36,944 nt of DNA from a virus, in the IMG/VR virus record IMGVR_UViG_3300037882_000748, positions 1 through 36,944 of that record. One strand, given 5' to 3'. Made by a program: the position numbers and the translations under genes. A model generated the notes under the pieces. It searched no databases. It was given only the letters and a program-made list of their open reading frames with translations, and was not told the DNA's origin. This document shows positions 294 to 36,488 of this stretch, piece by piece (within the stretch, counting starts at the first letter, position 1; each line of letters begins with the position of its first letter).

Positions 294-412
294 CGCCACA
301 GCATAACACAGCTTTCGTAAAAAGCAACAAAACAATGTTTCATATTTTGCTATTTTAGGTGTTGACGTTTGCAGAATGTGCTGCTAGGTTAGGGCATCAA
401 TTAGGAGGGAAT
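294..412. promoter_or_regulatory. Divergent control region between the two genome arms
   Basis: This is the only place where the minus-strand nuclease/replication operon and the plus-strand recombination operon diverge. The plus strand has a good promoter at 362-390 (separate entry). For the minus strand, the best sigma-70-like pair is TTGCTT (327-322), 16 bp, TATGCT (305-300). That would start transcription almost at the ATG at 293, so the minus promoter is uncertain. No ORF is seen here. Confidence 0.5.
362..390 (+). promoter_or_regulatory. Sigma-70-like early promoter upstream of rad52-like gene
   Basis: The -35 is TTGACG (362-367), the spacer is 17 bp, and the -10 is TAGGTT (385-390) with an extended -10 TGC just upstream. 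The layout TTGACG, 13 bp, CTGCTAG recurs exactly at 3797-3822. The start codon at 413 has a strong AGGAGG Shine-Dalgarno at 403-408. The distance from the -35 to the ATG is 51 nt, the same as at the 29445 promoter. Confidence 0.65.
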
Positions 413-1207
413 ATGACTAAGAATAATGCCGCAGCAGTGACGGAGCAAGCACCGCAAGGTGGGGTTGCACATGCCGCTGTAACACCTGAACGGACAGGTG
501 GCCGAACGATGGAATCAATCGAGGCGGCATTACAAGCAAAACTAAGCACCGAGAACGTGAAAGAGCGCAGCAAGGGTGGTGTGAAGCTATCTTATGTGGA
601 GGCTTGGCACGCTATAGCAGAAGCTAATCGCATCTTCGGGCATGACGGCTGGGAACGCGAAACCGTATATTGCAAAGAAGTGTGCAGGTATGAAAAGCAA
701 GGCAATAGCAAGCAGCTATGGGTTGTTGGTTATGAGGCAAAAGTTCGCGTATCTGCAATGGGTATTATCCGCGAAGGCACTGGGCATGGTAGCGGCCAGC
801 AAACTGAATTATACGATGCTATTGAATCAGCGGCGAAAGAGGCGGAATCGGATGCAATGAAGCGTGCTATGATGACTTTTGGCAATCCGTTTGGCTTGGC
901 CTTGTATGATAAGTCCAAGGAGAACGTCGAGGGAGTTTCAGTGTTCAAGAATGCTTCTCTTCGTAATACGTTCTTTAATAATTTGGTTGCGTCGTGGGAG
1001 AAATGCGTAAGCACTAAAGAGCTCGCAGAACGCAAGGCGCTAGACGATGCCAAATTGAAGGAAATGAGTGAGGGTAGCGAGCATGACCAACTTGCTTATG
1101 AGGAGCTTAAAAAGCGCTATGTCGGGCTGTATCAGGCGTTGCAAGATGCAGAGAAGCTAAACAGAGCTGCTGACCGTGGCGATTTCGATGGCGTGCTTGA
1201 TGACTAA
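413..1207 (+). CDS. Rad52/Rad22-family single-strand annealing protein
   Basis: This 264-aa protein should anneal complementary single strands during phage recombination and replication. Residues about 45-168 show the Rad52-fold signature: LSYVEAWHAIAEANRIFGHDGW, then KVRV, an EGTGHGSGQ turn and ESAAKEAESDAMKRAMMTFGNPFGLALY. The C-terminal third is charged and helical. The ATG at 413 is chosen because AGGAGG lies 5 nt upstream; an in-frame start at 359 would lie over the promoter. It heads the plus-strand operon, overlaps the next gene by 8 nt, and shares the arm with a DEDDy exonuclease, which could form a recombination pair. The family call is strong. Confidence 0.9.
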   Translation: MTKNNAAAVTEQAPQGGVAHAAVTPERTGGRTMESIEAALQAKLSTENVKERSKGGVKLSYVEAWHAIAEANRIFGHDGWERETVYCKEVCRYEKQGNSKQLWVVGYEAKVRVSAMGIIREGTGHGSGQQTELYDAIESAAKEAESDAMKRAMMTFGNPFGLALYDKSKENVEGVSVFKNASLRNTFFNNLVASWEKCVSTKELAERKALDDAKLKEMSEGSEHDQLAYEELKKRYVGLYQALQDAEKLNRAADRGDFDGVLDD

Positions 1208-1634
1208 GATTTATACCAAAATCACCAACGGCAAGATGCAGCCAGAAGCAGTGCAAGCAATAGTTGCAGAACTGTCACGGCATAATTCTAAGGACATTGC
1301 CATTACGATAGAGAGGAAGCGCAAGAAAAGGAGCTTAAACCAAAACTCATTTATGCACGGGGCATTCATGGAAGCATTGGTGGCTATGTATAAGCATTTT
1401 GGGCATGACTACGACGAACGACTGGTTAAGGATATATTCAAGCGCCAGTTCGGGGTTAAAATACGCATAGAGAACATAGACGGAAGCCACTACTACATGG
1501 ATAAGCCAACGCATGAATACAGCACTCAAGAAGCAGAAGATTGCATGGAAGCGTGCCGCAGGTTTTATGCTCAGTATTGGCAGATTCCCTATCCGAACGA
1601 ATTAACAACAGGAGTAACTAATGGACGGGCATAA
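1200..1634 (+). CDS. NinB-like phage recombination protein
   Basis: This 144-aa protein has the pattern of the NinB/Orf group: IAITIERKRKKRSLNQN early, a helical middle, and a C-terminal THEYSTQEAEDCMEACRRFY region ending in IPYPNE. Lambda NinB (Orf) is a recombination mediator that acts with single-strand binding proteins. Its position just after a Rad52-type annealer, with an 8-nt overlap, fits that role. The ATG at 1200 is taken for this coupling; GTG at 1176 and ATG at 1188 are alternatives. The family assignment is from motif memory and is moderate. Confidence 0.62.
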   Translation: MTKIYTKITNGKMQPEAVQAIVAELSRHNSKDIAITIERKRKKRSLNQNSFMHGAFMEALVAMYKHFGHDYDERLVKDIFKRQFGVKIRIENIDGSHYYMDKPTHEYSTQEAEDCMEACRRFYAQYWQIPYPNELTTGVTNGRA

Positions 1635-2484: not shown

Positions 2485-2517
2485 CCATTACTTGATTTTT
2501 ATGATATTGTAGGCAAA

Positions 2518-2529
2518 ACCTCATGAGGT
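2518..2529. promoter_or_regulatory. 12-bp perfect palindrome at the start of the HTH-exonuclease gene
   Basis: ACCTCATGAGGT is a perfect palindrome. Its right half (GAGGT) is also the Shine-Dalgarno of the gene starting at 2535. A possible -10, TATGAT, lies at 2500-2505 with a weak -35 (ATGACT, 2477-2482). A protein bound here would block transcription or translation. The downstream protein has its own N-terminal HTH, so autoregulation is possible. Confidence 0.4.
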
Positions 2530-2534
2530 AGCGC

Positions 2535-3521
2535 ATGGCGATTGATGTCAAAATACGCAGGGCAGCCGTGGAAGCGGTTAAATCTGGCATCTCTAGAGCC
2601 GCGGCTAGCAGGTTTTACGACATCAAAGATAGGGACGCAATCACGCTTTGGATGAGCAATCCTGATAAGTATCTGGTTTCGGATGAGGAGAGGTTAGCGG
2701 GTGTAAGTGGCGCGAGCGTCGCGCAAGAAATAGGGGCGGCGCGCGCGTTGGGCGCAAGCGGACATTTAAGCGGACATAAATCTCCTAAGATACTACATTT
2801 CGACATAGAAACACTGCCAAACGAAGGGTATTTTTTTGACATTTATTCGGACAGGGGGATAGCCCTACAATTCGTAAAGCGTGCCAAGGCTATTTGCTGC
2901 TTATCCTATAAATGGCATGGGGACGATAAAGTGGTGGTTATCATGAGCGAGTCACCCTACAACGATGCCAACGTGTGCAGTGAATTTTTGCCCATATACG
3001 AGCAAGCGGATTATGTGGTAGGTCACTATGCCCAAGGATTCGACATCCCCTTTCTAGATGGCAGGATGTTTGCTAATGGGCTAGCGCCGCTACCAGATAA
3101 GAACGTGCTGGACACCTACAAAATCGCCAAAAAGAAGTTTGGCAAAACCCTCAATAGCAACCGCCTCGACCACCTTGCCGAGCTGCTAGGGGTAGGGCGT
3201 AAGAACAAAACCGATGCCCAGCTTTGGGTTGATTGTGCGCAGGGGATACCAAAAGCCCTTGAGGAAATGGCGGCCTATAACGCTCAGGATGTGCGGTTAC
3301 TGGAGGATGTATTCACTGCATTACGCCCTTGGTTTAATAAGAAGCTAAACGCTAATTTATTTATTGACAACGTGACAAACCGTTGCCGCTCCTGTGAAAG
3401 CGAGAATCTTAACCTCATAGGTTATGAATTAACGGCAGCCACTATGAAGCCACAATACCGCTGCGGTGATTGCGGTGCGGTTTCTAGTTTCAAGAAGGTA
3501 GACGATGGAAAAGAAGCCTAA
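2535..3521 (+). CDS. HTH / DnaQ-like (DEDDy) 3'-5' exonuclease / zinc-ribbon fusion
   Basis: This 328-aa protein has three parts. Residues 1-45 look like a transposase-type HTH (IRRAAVEAVKSGISRAAASRFYDI). Residues about 85-265 are an RNase H-fold exonuclease of the PolB/YprB type: Exo I HFDIETL (D90, E92), Exo II VGHYAQGFDIPFL (D170) and Exo III YNAQD (Y248, D252), so the DEDDy set is complete. Residues 284-313 form a zinc ribbon (CRSC...CGDC). The phage has no DNA polymerase gene, so this may serve recombination with the Rad52-like protein or proofread host synthesis in trans. The ATG has GAGGT 5 nt upstream. The exonuclease call is strong; the role of the HTH is inferred. Confidence 0.85.
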   Translation: MAIDVKIRRAAVEAVKSGISRAAASRFYDIKDRDAITLWMSNPDKYLVSDEERLAGVSGASVAQEIGAARALGASGHLSGHKSPKILHFDIETLPNEGYFFDIYSDRGIALQFVKRAKAICCLSYKWHGDDKVVVIMSESPYNDANVCSEFLPIYEQADYVVGHYAQGFDIPFLDGRMFANGLAPLPDKNVLDTYKIAKKKFGKTLNSNRLDHLAELLGVGRKNKTDAQLWVDCAQGIPKALEEMAAYNAQDVRLLEDVFTALRPWFNKKLNANLFIDNVTNRCRSCESENLNLIGYELTAATMKPQYRCGDCGAVSSFKKVDDGKEA

Positions 3522-3675
3522 AGCCCAAATCCTATACCTTCGCCCCCGTCAGGCAAGCGCTGGGCGTACCACTTGTCTTGCCTGTACTTGCATATTCATA
3601 GCCTACACTGAAGAAGTGAACGCGCTGGTGCTTTGTCCTGAGTGTGGTGGCAGTTGTCGCGTGGGGCAAAAATAA
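3505..3675 (+). CDS. Small Cys-rich (zinc-binding) protein
   Basis: This 56-aa ORF overlaps the end of the exonuclease gene by 17 nt and has AAGG upstream. It carries two cysteine clusters, TTCLACTC and LCPECGGSC, a typical knuckle pair that could hold one zinc ion. It ends just before a strong promoter. Function is unknown; small zinc proteins of this type are frequent in phage early regions. Confidence 0.65.
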   Translation: MEKKPKAQILYLRPRQASAGRTTCLACTCIFIAYTEEVNALVLCPECGGSCRVGQK

Positions 3676-3682
3676 TTCTTGA
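3669..3682 (+). repeat. 14-bp promoter-upstream direct repeat, copy 1
   Basis: AAAATAATTCTTGA occurs here and at 3788-3801. Each copy ends inside a -35 box (TTGAAA and TTGACG). Two promoters therefore share an upstream element at a 119-bp offset, which suggests tandem duplication of a promoter. Confidence 0.7.
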
Positions 3683-3706
3683 AAAATTGCATTTATGCGT
3701 TATACT
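3679..3706 (+). promoter_or_regulatory. Strong sigma-70-like promoter with no ORF downstream
   Basis: The -35 is TTGAAA (3679-3684), the spacer is 16 bp, and the -10 is TATACT (3701-3706). This is among the best sigma-70 matches in the window. A terminator follows about 40 bp after the -10, so the product would be a short RNA. Confidence 0.68.
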
Positions 3707-3712
3707 TATTTT

Positions 3713-3779
3713 ACATATCGCCCGATGTCTCTCCCGCAAAACGACAACCCCCAGCATAGAAATGTGACTGGGGGTTTTT
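3713..3779 (+). ncRNA. Candidate small RNA between promoter and terminator
   Basis: A transcript from the promoter at 3679-3706 would run about 65-70 nt to the terminator at 3746-3779 and contains no ORF. Its 5' part has a small ACAT/ATGT and CG/CG hairpin possibility, then a single-stranded tract, TCTCTCCCGC, before the terminator stem. CUCUC could pair with GAGAG in the Shine-Dalgarno of the nearby leader. It could instead be an attenuator for the pentapeptide gene. The 5' end is estimated from the -10 position. Confidence 0.42.
3746..3779 (+). terminator. Strong intrinsic terminator
   Basis: A perfect 9-bp stem, AACCCCCAG (3746-3754) with CTGGGGGTT (3768-3776), has a 13-nt loop and is followed by a T run to 3779. 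It is the clearest terminator in the window and isolates the upstream unit from the pentapeptide gene promoter at 3797. Confidence 0.88.
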
Positions 3780-3787
3780 ATTGCTCA

Positions 3788-3801
3788 AAATAATTCTTGA
3801 C
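3788..3801 (+). repeat. 14-bp promoter-upstream direct repeat, copy 2
   Basis: This is the second copy of AAAATAATTCTTGA (first at 3669-3682). It leads into the TTGACG box of the pentapeptide gene promoter. Confidence 0.7.
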
Positions 3802-3825
3802 GGTGTTTGCATAACCTGCTAGAAC
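3797..3825 (+). promoter_or_regulatory. Promoter A of the three-copy promoter-leader element
   Basis: The -35 is TTGACG (3797-3802), the spacer is 17 bp, and the -10 is TAGAAC (3820-3825) with an extended TGC. It shares TTGACG-13-CTGCTAG with the promoter at 362. The -35 starts exactly 75 nt before the ATG at 3872, as in copies B (6072) and C (33693, minus). Confidence 0.65.
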
Positions 3826-3836
3826 CTCTTTTATCA

Positions 3837-3869
3837 GACGCGATTATGTGTCGATAGAACCGAGAGGGA
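3837..3869 (+). promoter_or_regulatory. Structured 5' leader, copy A (hairpin plus Shine-Dalgarno block)
   Basis: GACGC (3837-3841) pairs with GTGTC (3848-3852) around the loop GATTAT. The block ATAGAACCGAGAGGGA (3854-3869) follows and contains the ribosome site. Copy C has the same hairpin with its second base pair changed from A-T to C-G, a compensatory change. Copy B shares the 16-nt block exactly. Confidence 0.6.
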
Positions 3870-3871
3870 TT

Positions 3872-4588
3872 ATGAAGATTACCATTAAAGCCAGATTCAC
3901 CGATGCAGTAAAGTTTGAGGGTGAATACGAATCAACCAAACACGCTTGCGAAAACAATAAAGCTGACCTGCGCGGTGCTAACCTGCGCGGTGCTGACCTG
4001 TACGGTGCTGACCTGTGCGGTGCTAACCTGCGCGGTGCTAACCTGTGCGGTGCTGACCTGTACGGTGCTGACCTGTGCGGTGCTAACCTGCGCGGTGCTG
4101 ACCTGCGCGGTGCTGACCTGCGCGGTGCTAACCTGCGCGGTGCTGACCTGTACGGTGCTGACCTGTGCGGTGCTAACCTGCGCGGTGCTGACCTGCGCGG
4201 TGCTGACCTGCGCGGTGCTGACCTGTACGGTGCTAACCTGTACGGTGCTAACCTGCGCGGTGCTGACCTGCGCGGTGCTGACCTGTGCGGTGCTAACCTG
4301 CGCGGTGCTAACCTGTGCGGTGCTGACCTGTACGGTGCTGACAATAAACTTATTGGCAAGATTAAATCAGTGCTACAAATCGGCCCTATTGGCAGCCGCA
4401 AGGATTACACAATCGCAATTGAAACTGATGCTGGCACGTATATCAATGCTGGTTGTTTTTTTGGCACGTTTAAAGAGTTTACTGATAAAGTGAAAGCAAC
4501 CCACAAAATCGGCCAATACGCAATAGAATATAAATCGGCCATTGCAATGATTAAAGCAACATTCAAAGCGCGAGGCGACAATGCTTAA
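3872..4588 (+). CDS. Pentapeptide-repeat protein
   Basis: This 238-aa protein has a 30-aa N-terminal lead, then 25 uninterrupted pentapeptides of the form A(D/N)L(R/Y/C)G, giving a right-handed quadrilateral beta-helix. A C-terminal domain of about 80 aa follows (SVLQIGPIGSRKDYTIAIET...AGCFFGTFKEF), a conserved tail seen on several phage and bacterial pentapeptide proteins. Some family members mimic DNA and protect or inhibit gyrase, but no such role is shown here. The ATG at 3872 follows the copy-A leader. The last 8 nt overlap the next gene. The DNA repeats are almost identical, so the repeat number probably varies between isolates. Confidence 0.85.
   Translation: MKITIKARFTDAVKFEGEYESTKHACENNKADLRGANLRGADLYGADLCGANLRGANLCGADLYGADLCGANLRGADLRGADLRGANLRGADLYGADLCGANLRGADLRGADLRGADLYGANLYGANLRGADLRGADLCGANLRGANLCGADLYGADNKLIGKIKSVLQIGPIGSRKDYTIAIETDAGTYINAGCFFGTFKEFTDKVKATHKIGQYAIEYKSAIAMIKATFKARGDNA
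3962..4336 (+). repeat. 25 tandem 15-bp repeats encoding the pentapeptides
   Basis: The unit is GCT(G/A)ACCTG(CGC/TAC/TGC)GGT. Across all 25 units only the first base of codon 2 (Asp/Asn) and codon 4 (Arg/Tyr/Cys) change; the rest, including every wobble base, is constant. A 26th unit begins at 4337 and breaks off after GCTGAC. The block order Asn-Arg, Asp-Tyr, Asp-Cys recurs, as expected from slippage or unequal exchange. Confidence 0.95.
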
Positions 4589-34179: not shown

Positions 34180-35661
34180 CTAGCCCCCGTATTGAGAGAA
34201 AATTGCGCCAGCTTTGCTGAATCGCATTGTTTCTGTGTCGTAGTCTAAAATGTAATCATCTGGCAAGCCTATGTCCTTATGATACCTAGATTTTTGCACT
34301 CTTACAAGCGTATTATTCTGCTGCCTGTGAACTATCACTCCCAAATCTGCTTTGTTTGCCCAGTGAGCTGAATCAGCCACATCGTAAAGCGTGGGAATAG
34401 GATATTCGCCATCCTTGTTGCGCTGTAGTTTGGCTGGGTGTGCCACCACCGCCACATGGACATTGTAGCGCCTTGCAAACTTCTTGAGCTGCTTAATCGC
34501 GAACCCCGTGTAGTCTGTCTGCGACATTTCGCGCCTGTCGAAACTATGCTCCACCTCATTCCAAGGGTCGATAATGAACACATCCACATTGTGACGCATC
34601 ACAGCTGCCGCCATCTTCTCAAGCAACCAGCCTAAGCTTGCATCTTCATCGCTGTCTACATCAGGGACAATCAAGCTATAACGCTCGTTTATCCATCTGT
34701 CGGCGTTGCTTATGTCCTCGTGGTTTACTTTGCTTGCCGCCATATCACAAAACAAGGTTCTAAGTGCGTAGCGGTGCTGATTTTGCGGGGATTGCTCAAA
34801 ACTAGCCACGCCGATATTCCACCCACCCCTAGCCAAAACGTAGCTAATGTGGTTTGTTAGGGTCGATTTACCGTGAGAAGGGATGCCCGTCCACACCGAG
34901 AAGTCACCCTTGCGGATGTTGATGGGGAATATTTCGCAGCTTTTAGAATCAGGAACGGCAAGCGGTGGCAAGTCACCCATCCTGTACACACCATCAACCT
35001 TAAGCCATTCAGCCCTATTAATGGTTTTTTCTACACCGCGCTTGCCATACTTAACCAAAACCTCGTTTAAATCCTTGCACCCTACAGGGTATTTAATCCA
35101 CTTGCAGCGGTGCTTACCAAGCCTCAACCCCAAGTCATGCAACAGATTAGCGCCCGCCGCGTCACCATCCGCGCAGATAATAACCTCGCCAGTTACAGGA
35201 AAACCTTCAAGGTAGCTATACTTCACGCTCCCGTCACTAACCTGAGTAGCTGGCGCGCCATCAGGAACCGACACCGCCAAATAACCGTTCTGCAACGCCA
35301 CGGCGCAATCCATCTCGCCCTCACAGATAAGCAACTGCCCACCTGATTTCTGCCAATCTGCTATGGCCTCCTCGTTGTAAAAGCACTTCACCGCATCCTT
35401 GGCCTGAAAAAACTTCTTATCGCCCTTGATGGTTCGGGTTTTGGTGTTTACCTCTATCCCATCCCGATAGTATGGAATTTCTATAGTTACCTCACCAGCG
35501 GTAACTTTGCTTGAACTTCGCCACCCAAGTTTGCTTAGAAACTCTATGTTTAACAACCTCGCTTCCAGTATCTCTATGGCTTCCGCCGCTAACCCCGCAA
35601 TGGTGGCATTTGTAGACGTAGCTGCCGTCTTGGTCGATTGTAAGGCTAAGTGGTTTGTCAT
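34180..35661 (-). CDS. TOPRIM primase-helicase lacking the zinc domain (T7 gp4B-like)
   Basis: This 493-aa replicative protein has TOPRIM motifs LLICEGEMD (about 109-117) and VIICADGDAAG (about 160-170). A DnaB/gp4-type helicase follows: Walker A GIPSHGKST (259-267), Walker B DVFIIDPWNE (Asp365), and VAVVAHP (about 403-409). The zinc domain is encoded separately just upstream in another frame (35492-35752). ATG 35661 has AAGGAG 8 nt upstream, so the short form is initiated on its own, like T7 gp4B. A +1 frameshift in the 170-nt overlap would give a full-length gp4A-like primase. The first 45 residues overlap the zinc ORF. Confidence 0.85.
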   Translation of the reverse strand: MTNHLALQSTKTAATSTNATIAGLAAEAIEILEARLLNIEFLSKLGWRSSSKVTAGEVTIEIPYYRDGIEVNTKTRTIKGDKKFFQAKDAVKCFYNEEAIADWQKSGGQLLICEGEMDCAVALQNGYLAVSVPDGAPATQVSDGSVKYSYLEGFPVTGEVIICADGDAAGANLLHDLGLRLGKHRCKWIKYPVGCKDLNEVLVKYGKRGVEKTINRAEWLKVDGVYRMGDLPPLAVPDSKSCEIFPINIRKGDFSVWTGIPSHGKSTLTNHISYVLARGGWNIGVASFEQSPQNQHRYALRTLFCDMAASKVNHEDISNADRWINERYSLIVPDVDSDEDASLGWLLEKMAAAVMRHNVDVFIIDPWNEVEHSFDRREMSQTDYTGFAIKQLKKFARRYNVHVAVVAHPAKLQRNKDGEYPIPTLYDVADSAHWANKADLGVIVHRQQNNTLVRVQKSRYHKDIGLPDDYILDYDTETMRFSKAGAIFSQYGG

Positions 35662-35752
35662 GTTTGTTTCTCCTTGTGTGCTGGCATTTAGGACATTCTA
35701 GTTTTTGATTCCCCGCGTTTCGATGGCGCGGTCTTAGTTGGTCGAGGTTCAT
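35492..35752 (-). CDS. Primase zinc-binding domain (separate ORF)
   Basis: This 86-aa ORF reads ...LECPKCQHTRRNKHDKPLSL..., then YVYKCHHCGVSGG: CxxC and CxxC about 27 residues apart, as in the zinc domain of T7 gp4-type primases. It starts in an ATGA overlap with the upstream gene. It is in a different frame from the TOPRIM-helicase; moving from the first to the second needs a +1 shift. Either the two proteins act together or a frameshift joins them. A sequencing or assembly indel is also possible. Confidence 0.75.
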   Translation of the reverse strand: MNLDQLRPRHRNAGNQKLECPKCQHTRRNKHDKPLSLTIDQDGSYVYKCHHCGVSGGSHRDTGSEVVKHRVSKQTWVAKFKQSYRW

Positions 35753-36441
35753 AGCCCTGCCCTCGCAAAGCCAGTTTTAATGGGAGGAGGTGGCTGGTAT
35801 TCTGTTTCCCAGCCCCTCTGGAATAGCCATGTCGCCACGTGCTGAGTTTTCGTTTTTGTTTTTGCACACTGAGCGCAATAGGCTTTAGCTTGTGCCATTA
35901 GAATTTCATGAGTAACAAATCGTAAAGCTGCCTGATATTTTTCTTCTGCCTTGCTTTTTGTACCCTTGCTCATTTCATAGGGTTTCCATGTAATCCATAA
36001 GGCACTAAAATCCCCGTTGGGGACTATAGGGGTATTATTTCCTTTATTACCCTTATTAGGATGTGGGTGGTTTGTCGTATCGTCTGTCGTATCGTTTGTC
36101 GTCCCGCTTTGTTTAATTGCAGACTGGTATTGTGCGTAATTACAAATAGTTATCACATCAATTCTGTCGTGCCTCTGTCTGGTGATTCTATTGTCCGCCT
36201 CTAATTCTATTAAAAACGAAGCTACCTTCTTTCTACCCCACCGCCAACGCTGTGCCATGGCATCTTGTGACCACACCAATTGGCCGCGCTGAATATCGAC
36301 TCGGATGCCGCGAACAAAAATATGGGATGGTTTATAATTTGTTTGGAATAGTAAATCTATCCATGCTTGGCCGCGAGAGAACGGCTCCGATAACCATAAA
36401 TGATGGTTTGCAAGCGTGCGCTTTAAAGAAATATAAGACAT
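35749..36441 (-). CDS. Replisome organiser / replication initiator-like protein
   Basis: This 230-aa protein has a typical phage replication winged-helix N-terminus: MSYISLKRTLANHHLWLSEPFSRGQAWIDLL, RGQLVWSQDAMAQRWRWGRKKVASFL. A Thr/Asn-rich linker follows (TTNDTTDDTTNHPHPNKGNKGNN), then a helical C-terminus (KSKAEEKYQAALRF) that could load the helicase. The start is taken at ATG 36441 for fit with the family. A longer TTG start at 36480 would lie in an inverted-repeat arm. It probably binds the origin, perhaps the repeat at 36451-36488. Confidence 0.78.
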   Translation of the reverse strand: MSYISLKRTLANHHLWLSEPFSRGQAWIDLLFQTNYKPSHIFVRGIRVDIQRGQLVWSQDAMAQRWRWGRKKVASFLIELEADNRITRQRHDRIDVITICNYAQYQSAIKQSGTTNDTTDDTTNHPHPNKGNKGNNTPIVPNGDFSALWITWKPYEMSKGTKSKAEEKYQAALRFVTHEILMAQAKAYCAQCAKTKTKTQHVATWLFQRGWETEYQPPPPIKTGFARAGL

Positions 36442-36450
36442 ATGGGACTT

Positions 36451-36488
36451 TCGCAAAGTTGATAGGGAGGCGGCAGCCAACTTTGCGA
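36451..36488. promoter_or_regulatory. 11-bp inverted repeat upstream of the replication initiator gene
   Basis: TCGCAAAGTTG (36451-36461) and CAACTTTGCGA (36478-36488) are perfect inverted copies with a 16-nt loop. No T run follows on either strand, so it is not a terminator. Its place just before the initiator start suggests an operator, an origin element or an mRNA hairpin. Confidence 0.55.

What the first reader, a model, noticed from the sequence alone, without database searches (positions are those of the whole stretch)
34180..35752. Primase-helicase split into zinc domain and TOPRIM-helicase in overlapping frames
The zinc domain (CPKC...CHHC) and the TOPRIM-helicase overlap by 170 nt, with a +1 difference. 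The short form has its own AAGGAG-ATG inside the zinc ORF, as T7 makes gp4B inside gp4A. Both frames stay protein-like through the overlap. Options are two proteins acting in trans, a programmed +1 frameshift making a full primase, or an indel error.
Basis: partly seen in the sequence, partly recalled or inferred. Interest (0 to 1): 0.55.

Follow-up and report, generated by a model that had tools for sequence, protein, structure and literature searches.

The report
Split phage primase in overlapping frames
In this phage, and in a large group of related phages, the enzyme that starts and unwinds DNA during replication appears to be made from two overlapping genes read in different frames (a small zinc-finger protein and a primase-helicase) rather than from one gene as in phage T7, and this is a long-conserved design rather than a sequencing error.

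Summary
On the minus strand an 86-aa zinc-ribbon ORF (35492-35752) and a 493-aa TOPRIM-helicase ORF (34180-35661) overlap by 170 nt, the second in the +1 frame of the first. Indel error is ruled out for the group: of 135 de-duplicated loci, 116 (the window included) have the same split in the same relative frame, 16 are fused, 2 Bradyrhizobium-type loci have two genes joined by ATGA, and 1 looks like a damaged fused gene. A programmed frameshift is not needed and finds little support: no slippery codon is conserved at a fixed place; 94 of 116 split loci have a well-primed start just after the zinc domain; loci without it more often have one further upstream, as the window does (AAGGAG-ATG at 35661). 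The zinc frame stays open, and in part conserved, past that start, so the overlap is probably read in both frames. Best reading: two separately initiated proteins, a zinc protein and a T7-gp4B-like primase-helicase, that work together in trans. Neither product has been seen. Actinophage primases show the same zinc/TOPRIM split and +1 offset in another family (6 of 6 examined). New variant of a known kind; 9 literature searches found no paper on it.

The parts
35749..36480 (-). DnaD-like helicase loader / replication initiator; its TGA stop overlaps the zinc ORF's ATG (ATGA, 35752-35749)
   Evidence: phrog_2514 DnaD-like helicase loader E 6.6e-24; sequence
35492..35752 (-). zinc-ribbon ORF, 86 aa: CxxC at residues 20/23 and 49/52, then a 34-residue tail
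   Evidence: 4 Cys invariant in 38 of 38; four strands, pLDDT about 85-92 for residues 11-60
35492..35596 (-). tail of the zinc ORF after the last Cys codon (34 codons and stop), overlapping the 5' part of the helicase
   Evidence: low-confidence model
35670..35675 (-). Shine-Dalgarno-like AAGGAG, 8 nt before the ATG
   Evidence: anti-SD pairing -8.5 kcal/mol
35659..35661 (-). ATG start of the TOPRIM-helicase ORF, inside the zinc coding region; the only ATG/GTG/TTG in this frame between the upstream stop and the conserved part
35575..35577 (-). ATA near the place where most relatives have the helicase start (19 nt past the last Cys codon); the window has no ATG/GTG/TTG there
34180..35661 (-). 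TOPRIM-helicase ORF, 493 aa, equivalent to T7 gp4 from about residue 79 on
   Evidence: phrog_239 E 3.8e-67; profile match to the full-length T7 gp4 chain 6n7i, residues 79-539, E 2.3e-29, and to 5ikn E 1.4e-30; Foldseek best 5ikn E 4.1e-24
35602..35661 (-). first 20 codons of the helicase ORF, lying over the zinc domain; residues 1-17 have pLDDT under 50
35320..35322 (-). TOPRIM Glu (E114), invariant
35161..35169 (-). TOPRIM DGD (D165-D167), both Asp invariant
34867..34887 (-). Walker A loop G259-K265
   Evidence: G259, G264, K265 invariant
35492..35661 (-). 170-nt overlap of the two ORFs

Best explanation
A primase-helicase of the T7 gp4/TWINKLE type whose N-terminal zinc-binding domain is a gene of its own. 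One message probably carries, in order, a DnaD-like loader, the zinc protein (its ATG overlaps the loader's stop) and the TOPRIM-helicase. The TOPRIM-helicase is started by its own Shine-Dalgarno and start codon inside the zinc gene, in the +1 frame. In most relatives that start lies 19-25 nt after the last zinc cysteine, often with GGAGG supplied by the zinc domain's Gly-Gly codons; in the window it is most likely the AAGGAG-ATG at 35661. The zinc protein goes on past that start with a tail in its own frame. Shown by sequence: the split, its conservation, the start signals, conserved catalytic or metal-binding residues in both proteins, a zinc frame kept open and partly conserved. Inferred: one message, both proteins made, and the zinc protein joining the helicase ring in trans to give template recognition and priming, because a zinc-less T7 gp4 does not synthesise primers.
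For: Frame census by profile HMM: of 226 loci, 190 split at +1, 18 fused, 4 split at +2, 7 without a zinc hit, 6 partial, 1 without TOPRIM; de-duplicated 116 / 16 / 3 of 135. One of the 3 (L093) sits in the fused group and its zinc frame runs on into TOPRIM-like residues. Starts: 94 of 116 have ATG/GTG/TTG 13-46 nt past the last Cys with anti-SD pairing of -5 or better; best start per locus, where there is one (104 of 116), median -7.6 against -2.6 for 3070 internal control codons, though taking the best of several favours low values; 116 of 116 have some in-frame start. Compensation: 9 of 22 loci without a good post-zinc start have a well-primed upstream start, against 6 of 94 with one (Fisher p 1.6e-4). 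Two separate genes exist outright in L217: zinc 2199-2492 and TOPRIM 2489-4039, and that form is nested inside the +1 clade. There the zinc tail overlaps TOPRIM by only 4 nt, yet L129 and L217 tails differ at 8, 5 and 17 first, second and third codon positions over 31 codons, with 21 identical residues, the pattern of protein-level selection. Third bases that are synonymous in the TOPRIM frame are more conserved inside the overlap in 29 of 33 short-tail pairs (0.72 against 0.584, p 1e-5), with a step from 0.73 to 0.61 at about codon 40, near the zinc stop. Openness against synonymous shuffles, in groups defined by the tree: a clade of 32, 32 open to 85 codons or more (2.7 expected); a clade of 6, 6 (0.3 expected); the other 78, 78 open to 33 or more (40.4 expected) but 0 to 60 or more (16.1 expected), i.e. 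an early stop is avoided and then a stop is kept. T7's 56-kDa form without zinc domain starts at codon 64 and lacks primer synthesis (PMC9198812, passages).
Against: No protein evidence for either product. The window lacks the canonical post-zinc start, and the highest identity to any row of the tree is 49%. Relatives are not independent: the split arose about once on the tree, so inertia explains part of the frame constancy, and the sign, Fisher and shuffle tests ignore ancestry. The 33-codon threshold is the observed minimum; the long/short grouping is by tail length itself, so the '38 of 38' is partly circular and one search replaces it. In the long-tail group third-base conservation is weakly raised (11 of 17 pairs, sign p 0.33, Wilcoxon p 0.045; 0.63 against 0.572): high to codon 22, 0.54-0.58 at codons 22-40, 0.60-0.64 at 40-100, so the far tail may be open without being functional. 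The zinc frame is open over a comparable stretch further downstream in 41 of 78 and 6 of 38, and the third frame in 33 of 78 and 3 of 38. For single short-tail loci the observed tail is unremarkable (median P 0.47). Tails vary from 33 to 140 codons and the window's tail is modelled with low confidence. Several loci have ATT or CTG where the start should be and only a moderate upstream signal.
Confidence: 0.77

Rival explanations
1. A programmed +1 frameshift joins the two frames, so that some ribosomes make a full-length gp4A-like primase-helicase while the internal start makes the gp4B-like form.
For: The +1 relation is near-constant among split loci (116 of 119 de-duplicated) although protein identity between them is often under 40%, and it was kept while the Cys-to-start distance changed at least 24 times on the tree (96 loci; moves of the start codon by substitution count too). 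Synonymous sites in the first 6 codons after the last Cys are the most conserved (0.943, short-tail pairs). Codons of one repeated base are commoner in 17 codons from the last Cys (99 of 116) than in a control stretch (65 of 116). One genome announcement reports a programmed frameshift in the primase gene of mycobacteriophage OKCentral2016 (PMC5824014, one sentence read).
Against: No codon after the last Cys, or at a fixed distance from the start, reaches half of the loci; the commonest is GGA, 55 of 116, in the Shine-Dalgarno. An upstream shift alone leaves the kept-open zinc tail unexplained. All 116 loci have an in-frame start, and loci lacking the usual one more often have another. The Bradyrhizobium form with an ATGA junction has two separate genes. 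16 of 116 loci have a TOPRIM-frame stop within 8 codons of the last Cys, which narrows where a shift could act.
Confidence: 0.13
2. The window carries an indel (sequencing error or mutation) in an ordinary fused gene.
For: Fused relatives exist: 16 of 135 de-duplicated loci and 76 of 79 more distant loci found with L002.
Against: The same split in the same frame is found in 116 of 135 de-duplicated loci, the window included; among the loci is L213 (Sphingopyxis sp. PET50, titled complete genome) and, before de-duplication, L205 (Rhizobium johnstonii 3841, titled complete sequence). The window's five nearest rows in the tree are all split.
Confidence: 0.03
3. The zinc ORF is a degenerating leftover; the phage uses the host primase and only the helicase works.
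For: The tail is variable, and 7 of 226 loci show no zinc-ribbon hit, though two of these (L192, L194) begin inside the TOPRIM gene.
Against: Four Cys invariant in 38 of 38 zinc proteins, TOPRIM E114/D165/D167 invariant in 39 of 39 helicases, and a zinc frame kept open.
Confidence: 0.07

Closest known systems
Bacteriophage T7 gene 4 protein (gp4A 63 kDa, gp4B 56 kDa)
   Same: TOPRIM plus RecA-like hexameric helicase; the profile of this family matches full-length T7 gp4 over residues 79-539 (6n7i, E 2.3e-29), beginning soon after codon 64 where the T7 56-kDa form starts by internal initiation (PMC9198812, passages).
   Different: T7 keeps both forms in one frame and makes a full-length form. 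Here the zinc domain is a separate ORF in another frame and no full-length ORF exists.
TWINKLE-like helicases
   Same: Same fold by Foldseek (7t8c E 2.2e-21, 8e2l E 3.7e-20).
   Different: TOPRIM Glu and Asp residues are invariant here; animal TWINKLE has only helicase activity owing to changes in its primase domain (start of the abstract of PMC3610141, listing).
Two-gene DnaG-type primases of actinophages (D29, Joselito, Lokk, IgnatiusPatJac, Rasputin, Nedarya)
   Same: Zinc gene followed by a TOPRIM gene in its +1 frame in 6 of 6 records examined, annotated as overlapping in 5 of 6 (not D29); 25 of 30 listed records show two 'DNA primase' genes under the zinc match.
   Different: No helicase fused to TOPRIM; zinc domain not detectably similar by BLAST; TOPRIM only distantly similar (28% over 137 columns). 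A separate origin is inferred.
Fused zinc-TOPRIM-helicases of related phages (L062, L203, L215; 76 of the 79 loci L228-L306)
   Same: Same zinc domain by HMM (18 fused loci hit) and same helicase family.
   Different: One uninterrupted gene.

Membership tests
T7 gp4-type primase-helicase | TOPRIM catalytic Glu and Asp residues | tested here: met
   E114, D165, D167 invariant in 39 of 39; their catalytic role is recalled
T7 gp4-type primase-helicase | RecA-like helicase domain with Walker A | tested here: met
   G264 and K265 invariant; T7 gp4 top fold match
T7 gp4-type primase-helicase | zinc-binding domain in the same polypeptide | tested here: not met
   separate ORF in another frame in the window and in 116 of 135 de-duplicated loci
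T7 gp4-type primase-helicase | four-cysteine zinc ribbon encoded next to TOPRIM | tested here: met
   4 Cys in 38 of 38; four-stranded model
T7 gp4A/gp4B pair | both a full-length and a zinc-less form are made | not testable with these tools
   needs proteomics
programmed +1 frameshift gene | conserved slippery site at a fixed place in the overlap | tested here: not met
   no codon after the last Cys reaches half of the 116 loci; highest GGA 55 of 116
programmed +1 frameshift gene | trans-frame fusion product | not testable with these tools
   needs a reporter or proteomics
overlapping (dual-coding) gene pair | second frame under constraint beyond what the first imposes | tested here: inconclusive
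   supported for the short-tail group and for the Bradyrhizobium tails outside an overlap; weak for the long-tail group; ancestry not modelled
actinophage two-gene DnaG primase | zinc gene and TOPRIM gene with +1 offset | tested here: met
   window; 6 of 6 actinophage records
actinophage two-gene DnaG primase | TOPRIM protein without fused helicase | tested here: not met
   the helicase is fused in the window

The most novel reading that the evidence does not exclude
Two unrelated phage primase families (alphaproteobacterial-type primase-helicases and actinophage DnaG-type primases) each moved the zinc domain into a gene that overlaps TOPRIM in the same +1 frame, because a rare +1 ribosomal shift at the junction supplies a few full-length primase subunits to a complex made mostly of zinc-less subunits, so that the genetic layout sets primase stoichiometry.
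Probability: 0.12. Interest if true: 0.75.

Novelty: new variant of a known kind. Interest (0 to 1): 0.5.

Why it matters
It gives a large natural set of T7-type primase-helicases in which the zinc domain is free. Whether a zinc domain can work in trans, and how many a replisome needs, becomes testable by mixing two purified proteins. It is also a candidate case of long-lived dual coding (33 to 140 codons after the last Cys) in phages, and a warning that annotation can miss the zinc gene: in Bradyrhizobium phage BDU-MI-1 no feature is annotated under it, and P0002 reaches no Pfam or NCBIfam cut-off.

Tried and rejected
Indel error: rejected by the frame census. A fixed slippery site: codon counts from the last Cys and from the start found none. 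Tail as a conserved domain of fixed length: rejected, tails run from 33 to 140 codons and by eye look compositional in the long group. My first alignment for a TOPRIM anchor in the enlarged set failed ('R column' 11 of 135); its Cys-to-R distances were not used, and the starts were redone with a regular expression, which may misplace the anchor in a few rows (L212, for one). The last Cys was misassigned at first in L077, L124, L184 and L187 and redone. Long and short groups were set by tail length, which makes the long-group openness count partly circular; one search repeats it with groups taken from the tree and gives the same picture. Literature: 9 searches that ran gave no paper on this split in primase-helicases; the library holds open-licence papers only and no bioRxiv preprints. 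Twelve papers were seen as search passages, none read whole. The plasmid collection gave no match for the L217 zinc protein.

Full report
Observation. On the minus strand the window has a zinc-ribbon ORF (35492-35752, 86 aa) and a TOPRIM-helicase ORF (34180-35661, 493 aa). They overlap by 170 nt and the second lies in the +1 frame of the first. AAGGAG stands 8 nt before the ATG at 35661. The zinc start overlaps the stop of a DnaD-like loader gene (ATGA). The window is a virus record of 36,944 bases.

What the proteins are. P0001 matches phrog_239 DNA primase/helicase (E 3.8e-67). A profile of 39 relatives matches T7 gp4 (5ikn E 1.4e-30; full-length chain 6n7i, residues 79-539, E 2.3e-29). Its AlphaFold model (pLDDT 91.5) finds T7 gp4 first, with TWINKLE chains among the top ten, in the PDB. 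TOPRIM E114/D165/D167 and Walker A G264/K265 are invariant in 39 of 39. P0002 has four Cys invariant in 38 of 38 aligned relatives and is modelled as a small four-stranded ribbon with a low-confidence tail. It reaches no Pfam or NCBIfam cut-off; over 38 zinc proteins the best Pfam E-value is 0.00039.

Relatives. Of 226 loci scored by zinc and TOPRIM profiles, 190 are split with TOPRIM = zinc +1, 18 fused, 4 split at +2, 7 without a zinc hit, 6 partial and 1 without TOPRIM. After removing near-copies (97% over the junction), 135 of the 212 with both domains remain: 116, 16 and 3. Of the 3, L093 lies in the fused group and its zinc frame runs on into TOPRIM-like residues, so it is probably a damaged or mis-sequenced fused gene; the other two (L129, L217) are Bradyrhizobium-type (L217 and L218, a near-copy of L129, are in named Bradyrhizobium records). 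On a FastTree tree of the 135 (midpoint root, so direction is not proved) the split rows form one group with these two nested inside, apart from L139, whose long branch makes its place unsure. A further 79 loci (L228-L306) found with L002 are fused in 76, split in 1 (the contig of L019 again), with 2 lacking a zinc hit. Of 81 loci L307-L387, mostly the same contigs again plus one actinophage, 70 are +1, 8 fused, 1 +2, 1 without zinc and 1 without TOPRIM. So the arrangement is widespread, probably arose once, and is not an assembly error.

Starts. 94 of 116 split loci have ATG, GTG or TTG 13-46 nt after the last Cys codon with anti-SD pairing of -5 kcal/mol or better; among them the commonest distances are 22, 19 and 25 nt (39, 21 and 18). 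The pairing sequence is commonly the Gly-Gly pair of the zinc domain, e.g. GGA GGC. The best start per locus (104 of 116 have one) has a median of -7.6 against -2.6 for 3070 internal control codons, a comparison that favours the best-of-several. Where a good post-zinc start is missing, an upstream start with good pairing is present in 9 of 22, against 6 of 94 elsewhere (Fisher p 1.6e-4; p from 2.6e-8 to 0.07 over nine threshold pairs; ancestry not modelled). The window belongs to the first group: no ATG, GTG or TTG after the zinc domain, only ATA, but AAGGAG-ATG at 35661 (-8.5). If used, that start adds about 20 residues, of which 1-17 have pLDDT under 50.

Is the zinc frame read past the helicase start? 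Third bases that are synonymous in the TOPRIM frame are more often identical inside the overlap: in short-tail pairs 0.72 against 0.584 downstream, higher in 29 of 33 (p 1e-5), stepping from 0.73 at codons 34-40 to 0.61 at 40-50 and 0.67 at 50-60; in long-tail pairs 0.63 against 0.572, 11 of 17 (sign p 0.33, Wilcoxon p 0.045), high to codon 22, then 0.54-0.58 to codon 40 and 0.60-0.64 to codon 100 (50 disjoint pairs from 116 loci). Synonymous shuffling, with groups taken from the tree: in a clade of 32, 32 are open to 85 codons or more (2.7 expected); in a clade of 6, 6 (0.3); of the other 78, 78 are open to 33 or more (40.4; the threshold is the observed minimum) but none to 60 or more (16.1). 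Over all 116: 116 to 33 or more (60.2) and 38 to 85 or more (10.5). Early stops are thus avoided, and in the short group a stop is then kept. Controls: third frame open over the same stretch in 33 of 78 and 3 of 38, zinc frame further down in 41 of 78 and 6 of 38. Shared ancestry inflates all of this. In L129 and L217, where the zinc gene ends at an ATGA junction, the tails still end KRSIQDYYR and KRSIASYYR and differ mostly at third positions (8, 5, 17 over 31 codons). I conclude that the tail is probably translated and weakly selected, most clearly in the short-tail group.

Frameshift. No codon after the last Cys reaches half of the loci at a fixed place (highest GGA, 55 of 116). Single-base codons are commoner near the last Cys (99 of 116 against 65 of 116 in a control stretch), which Gly and Phe codons may explain. 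Every locus has an in-frame start (116 of 116), and 16 of 116 have a TOPRIM-frame stop within 8 codons of the last Cys. The Cys-to-start distance changed at least 24 times on the tree without loss of the +1 relation, which dual coding or a shift could explain. A low-level shift cannot be excluded.

Parallel. Actinophages carry two 'DNA primase' genes, zinc then TOPRIM, with +1 offset in 6 of 6 records examined (IgnatiusPatJac, Joselito, Rasputin, Nedarya, Lokk, D29), annotated as overlapping in 5 of 6. 1039 records match the zinc gene, and 25 of the 30 listed show two primase genes under the match. One genome announcement calls the primase a programmed frameshift (PMC5824014, sentence read); another lists two DNA primases (PMC9584200, passage). 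The proteins are only distantly related to the window's, so I infer a separate origin; with two split offsets possible, sharing +1 is weak evidence by itself.

Verdict. A split T7-type primase-helicase: two separately initiated proteins in overlapping frames, most likely acting together in trans. The existence and conservation of the layout are shown; the making of both proteins and their joint action are inferred.

Noticed in passing
L066:3369-4006: By eye, an HNH-endonuclease-like insert sits at the zinc/TOPRIM junction, with a second TOPRIM-like N-terminus upstream of it; no family search was made.
   Followed up: no
L027, L056, L074, L172, L175, L176, L193: In the clade that includes Sphingomonas prophages, these have ATT (4 loci), CTG (2) or no start-like codon (L027) where relatives start the helicase 22 nt past the last Cys; 6 of these 7 have an ATG or GTG at -47.
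   Followed up: partly
L387-L392 (actinophages): Separate zinc and TOPRIM primase genes with +1 offset in 6 of 6; looks like a second, independent case.
   Followed up: partly
L068:3856-4042: A DnaG-like zinc motif stands in place of the usual zinc ribbon but lies in the same relative frame.
   Followed up: no
L077, L184, L187: The second cysteine pair of the zinc domain is spaced wider than CxxC (CHNGC, CHNPGC).
   Followed up: no
window 35752-35492: Most relatives have a fifth cysteine (CLSV or similar); the window and L015 have a proline there (DKPL).
   Followed up: no
L079:3986-6559: The helicase ORF runs on to 858 codons, longer than in the other loci listed; left out of alignment A1.
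   Followed up: no
window 359-1207 (+) and 1176-1634 (+): Rad52-like recombinase and NinB-like protein in the plus-strand gene block.
   Followed up: no
window 3848-4588 (+): Pentapeptide-repeat protein.
   Followed up: no
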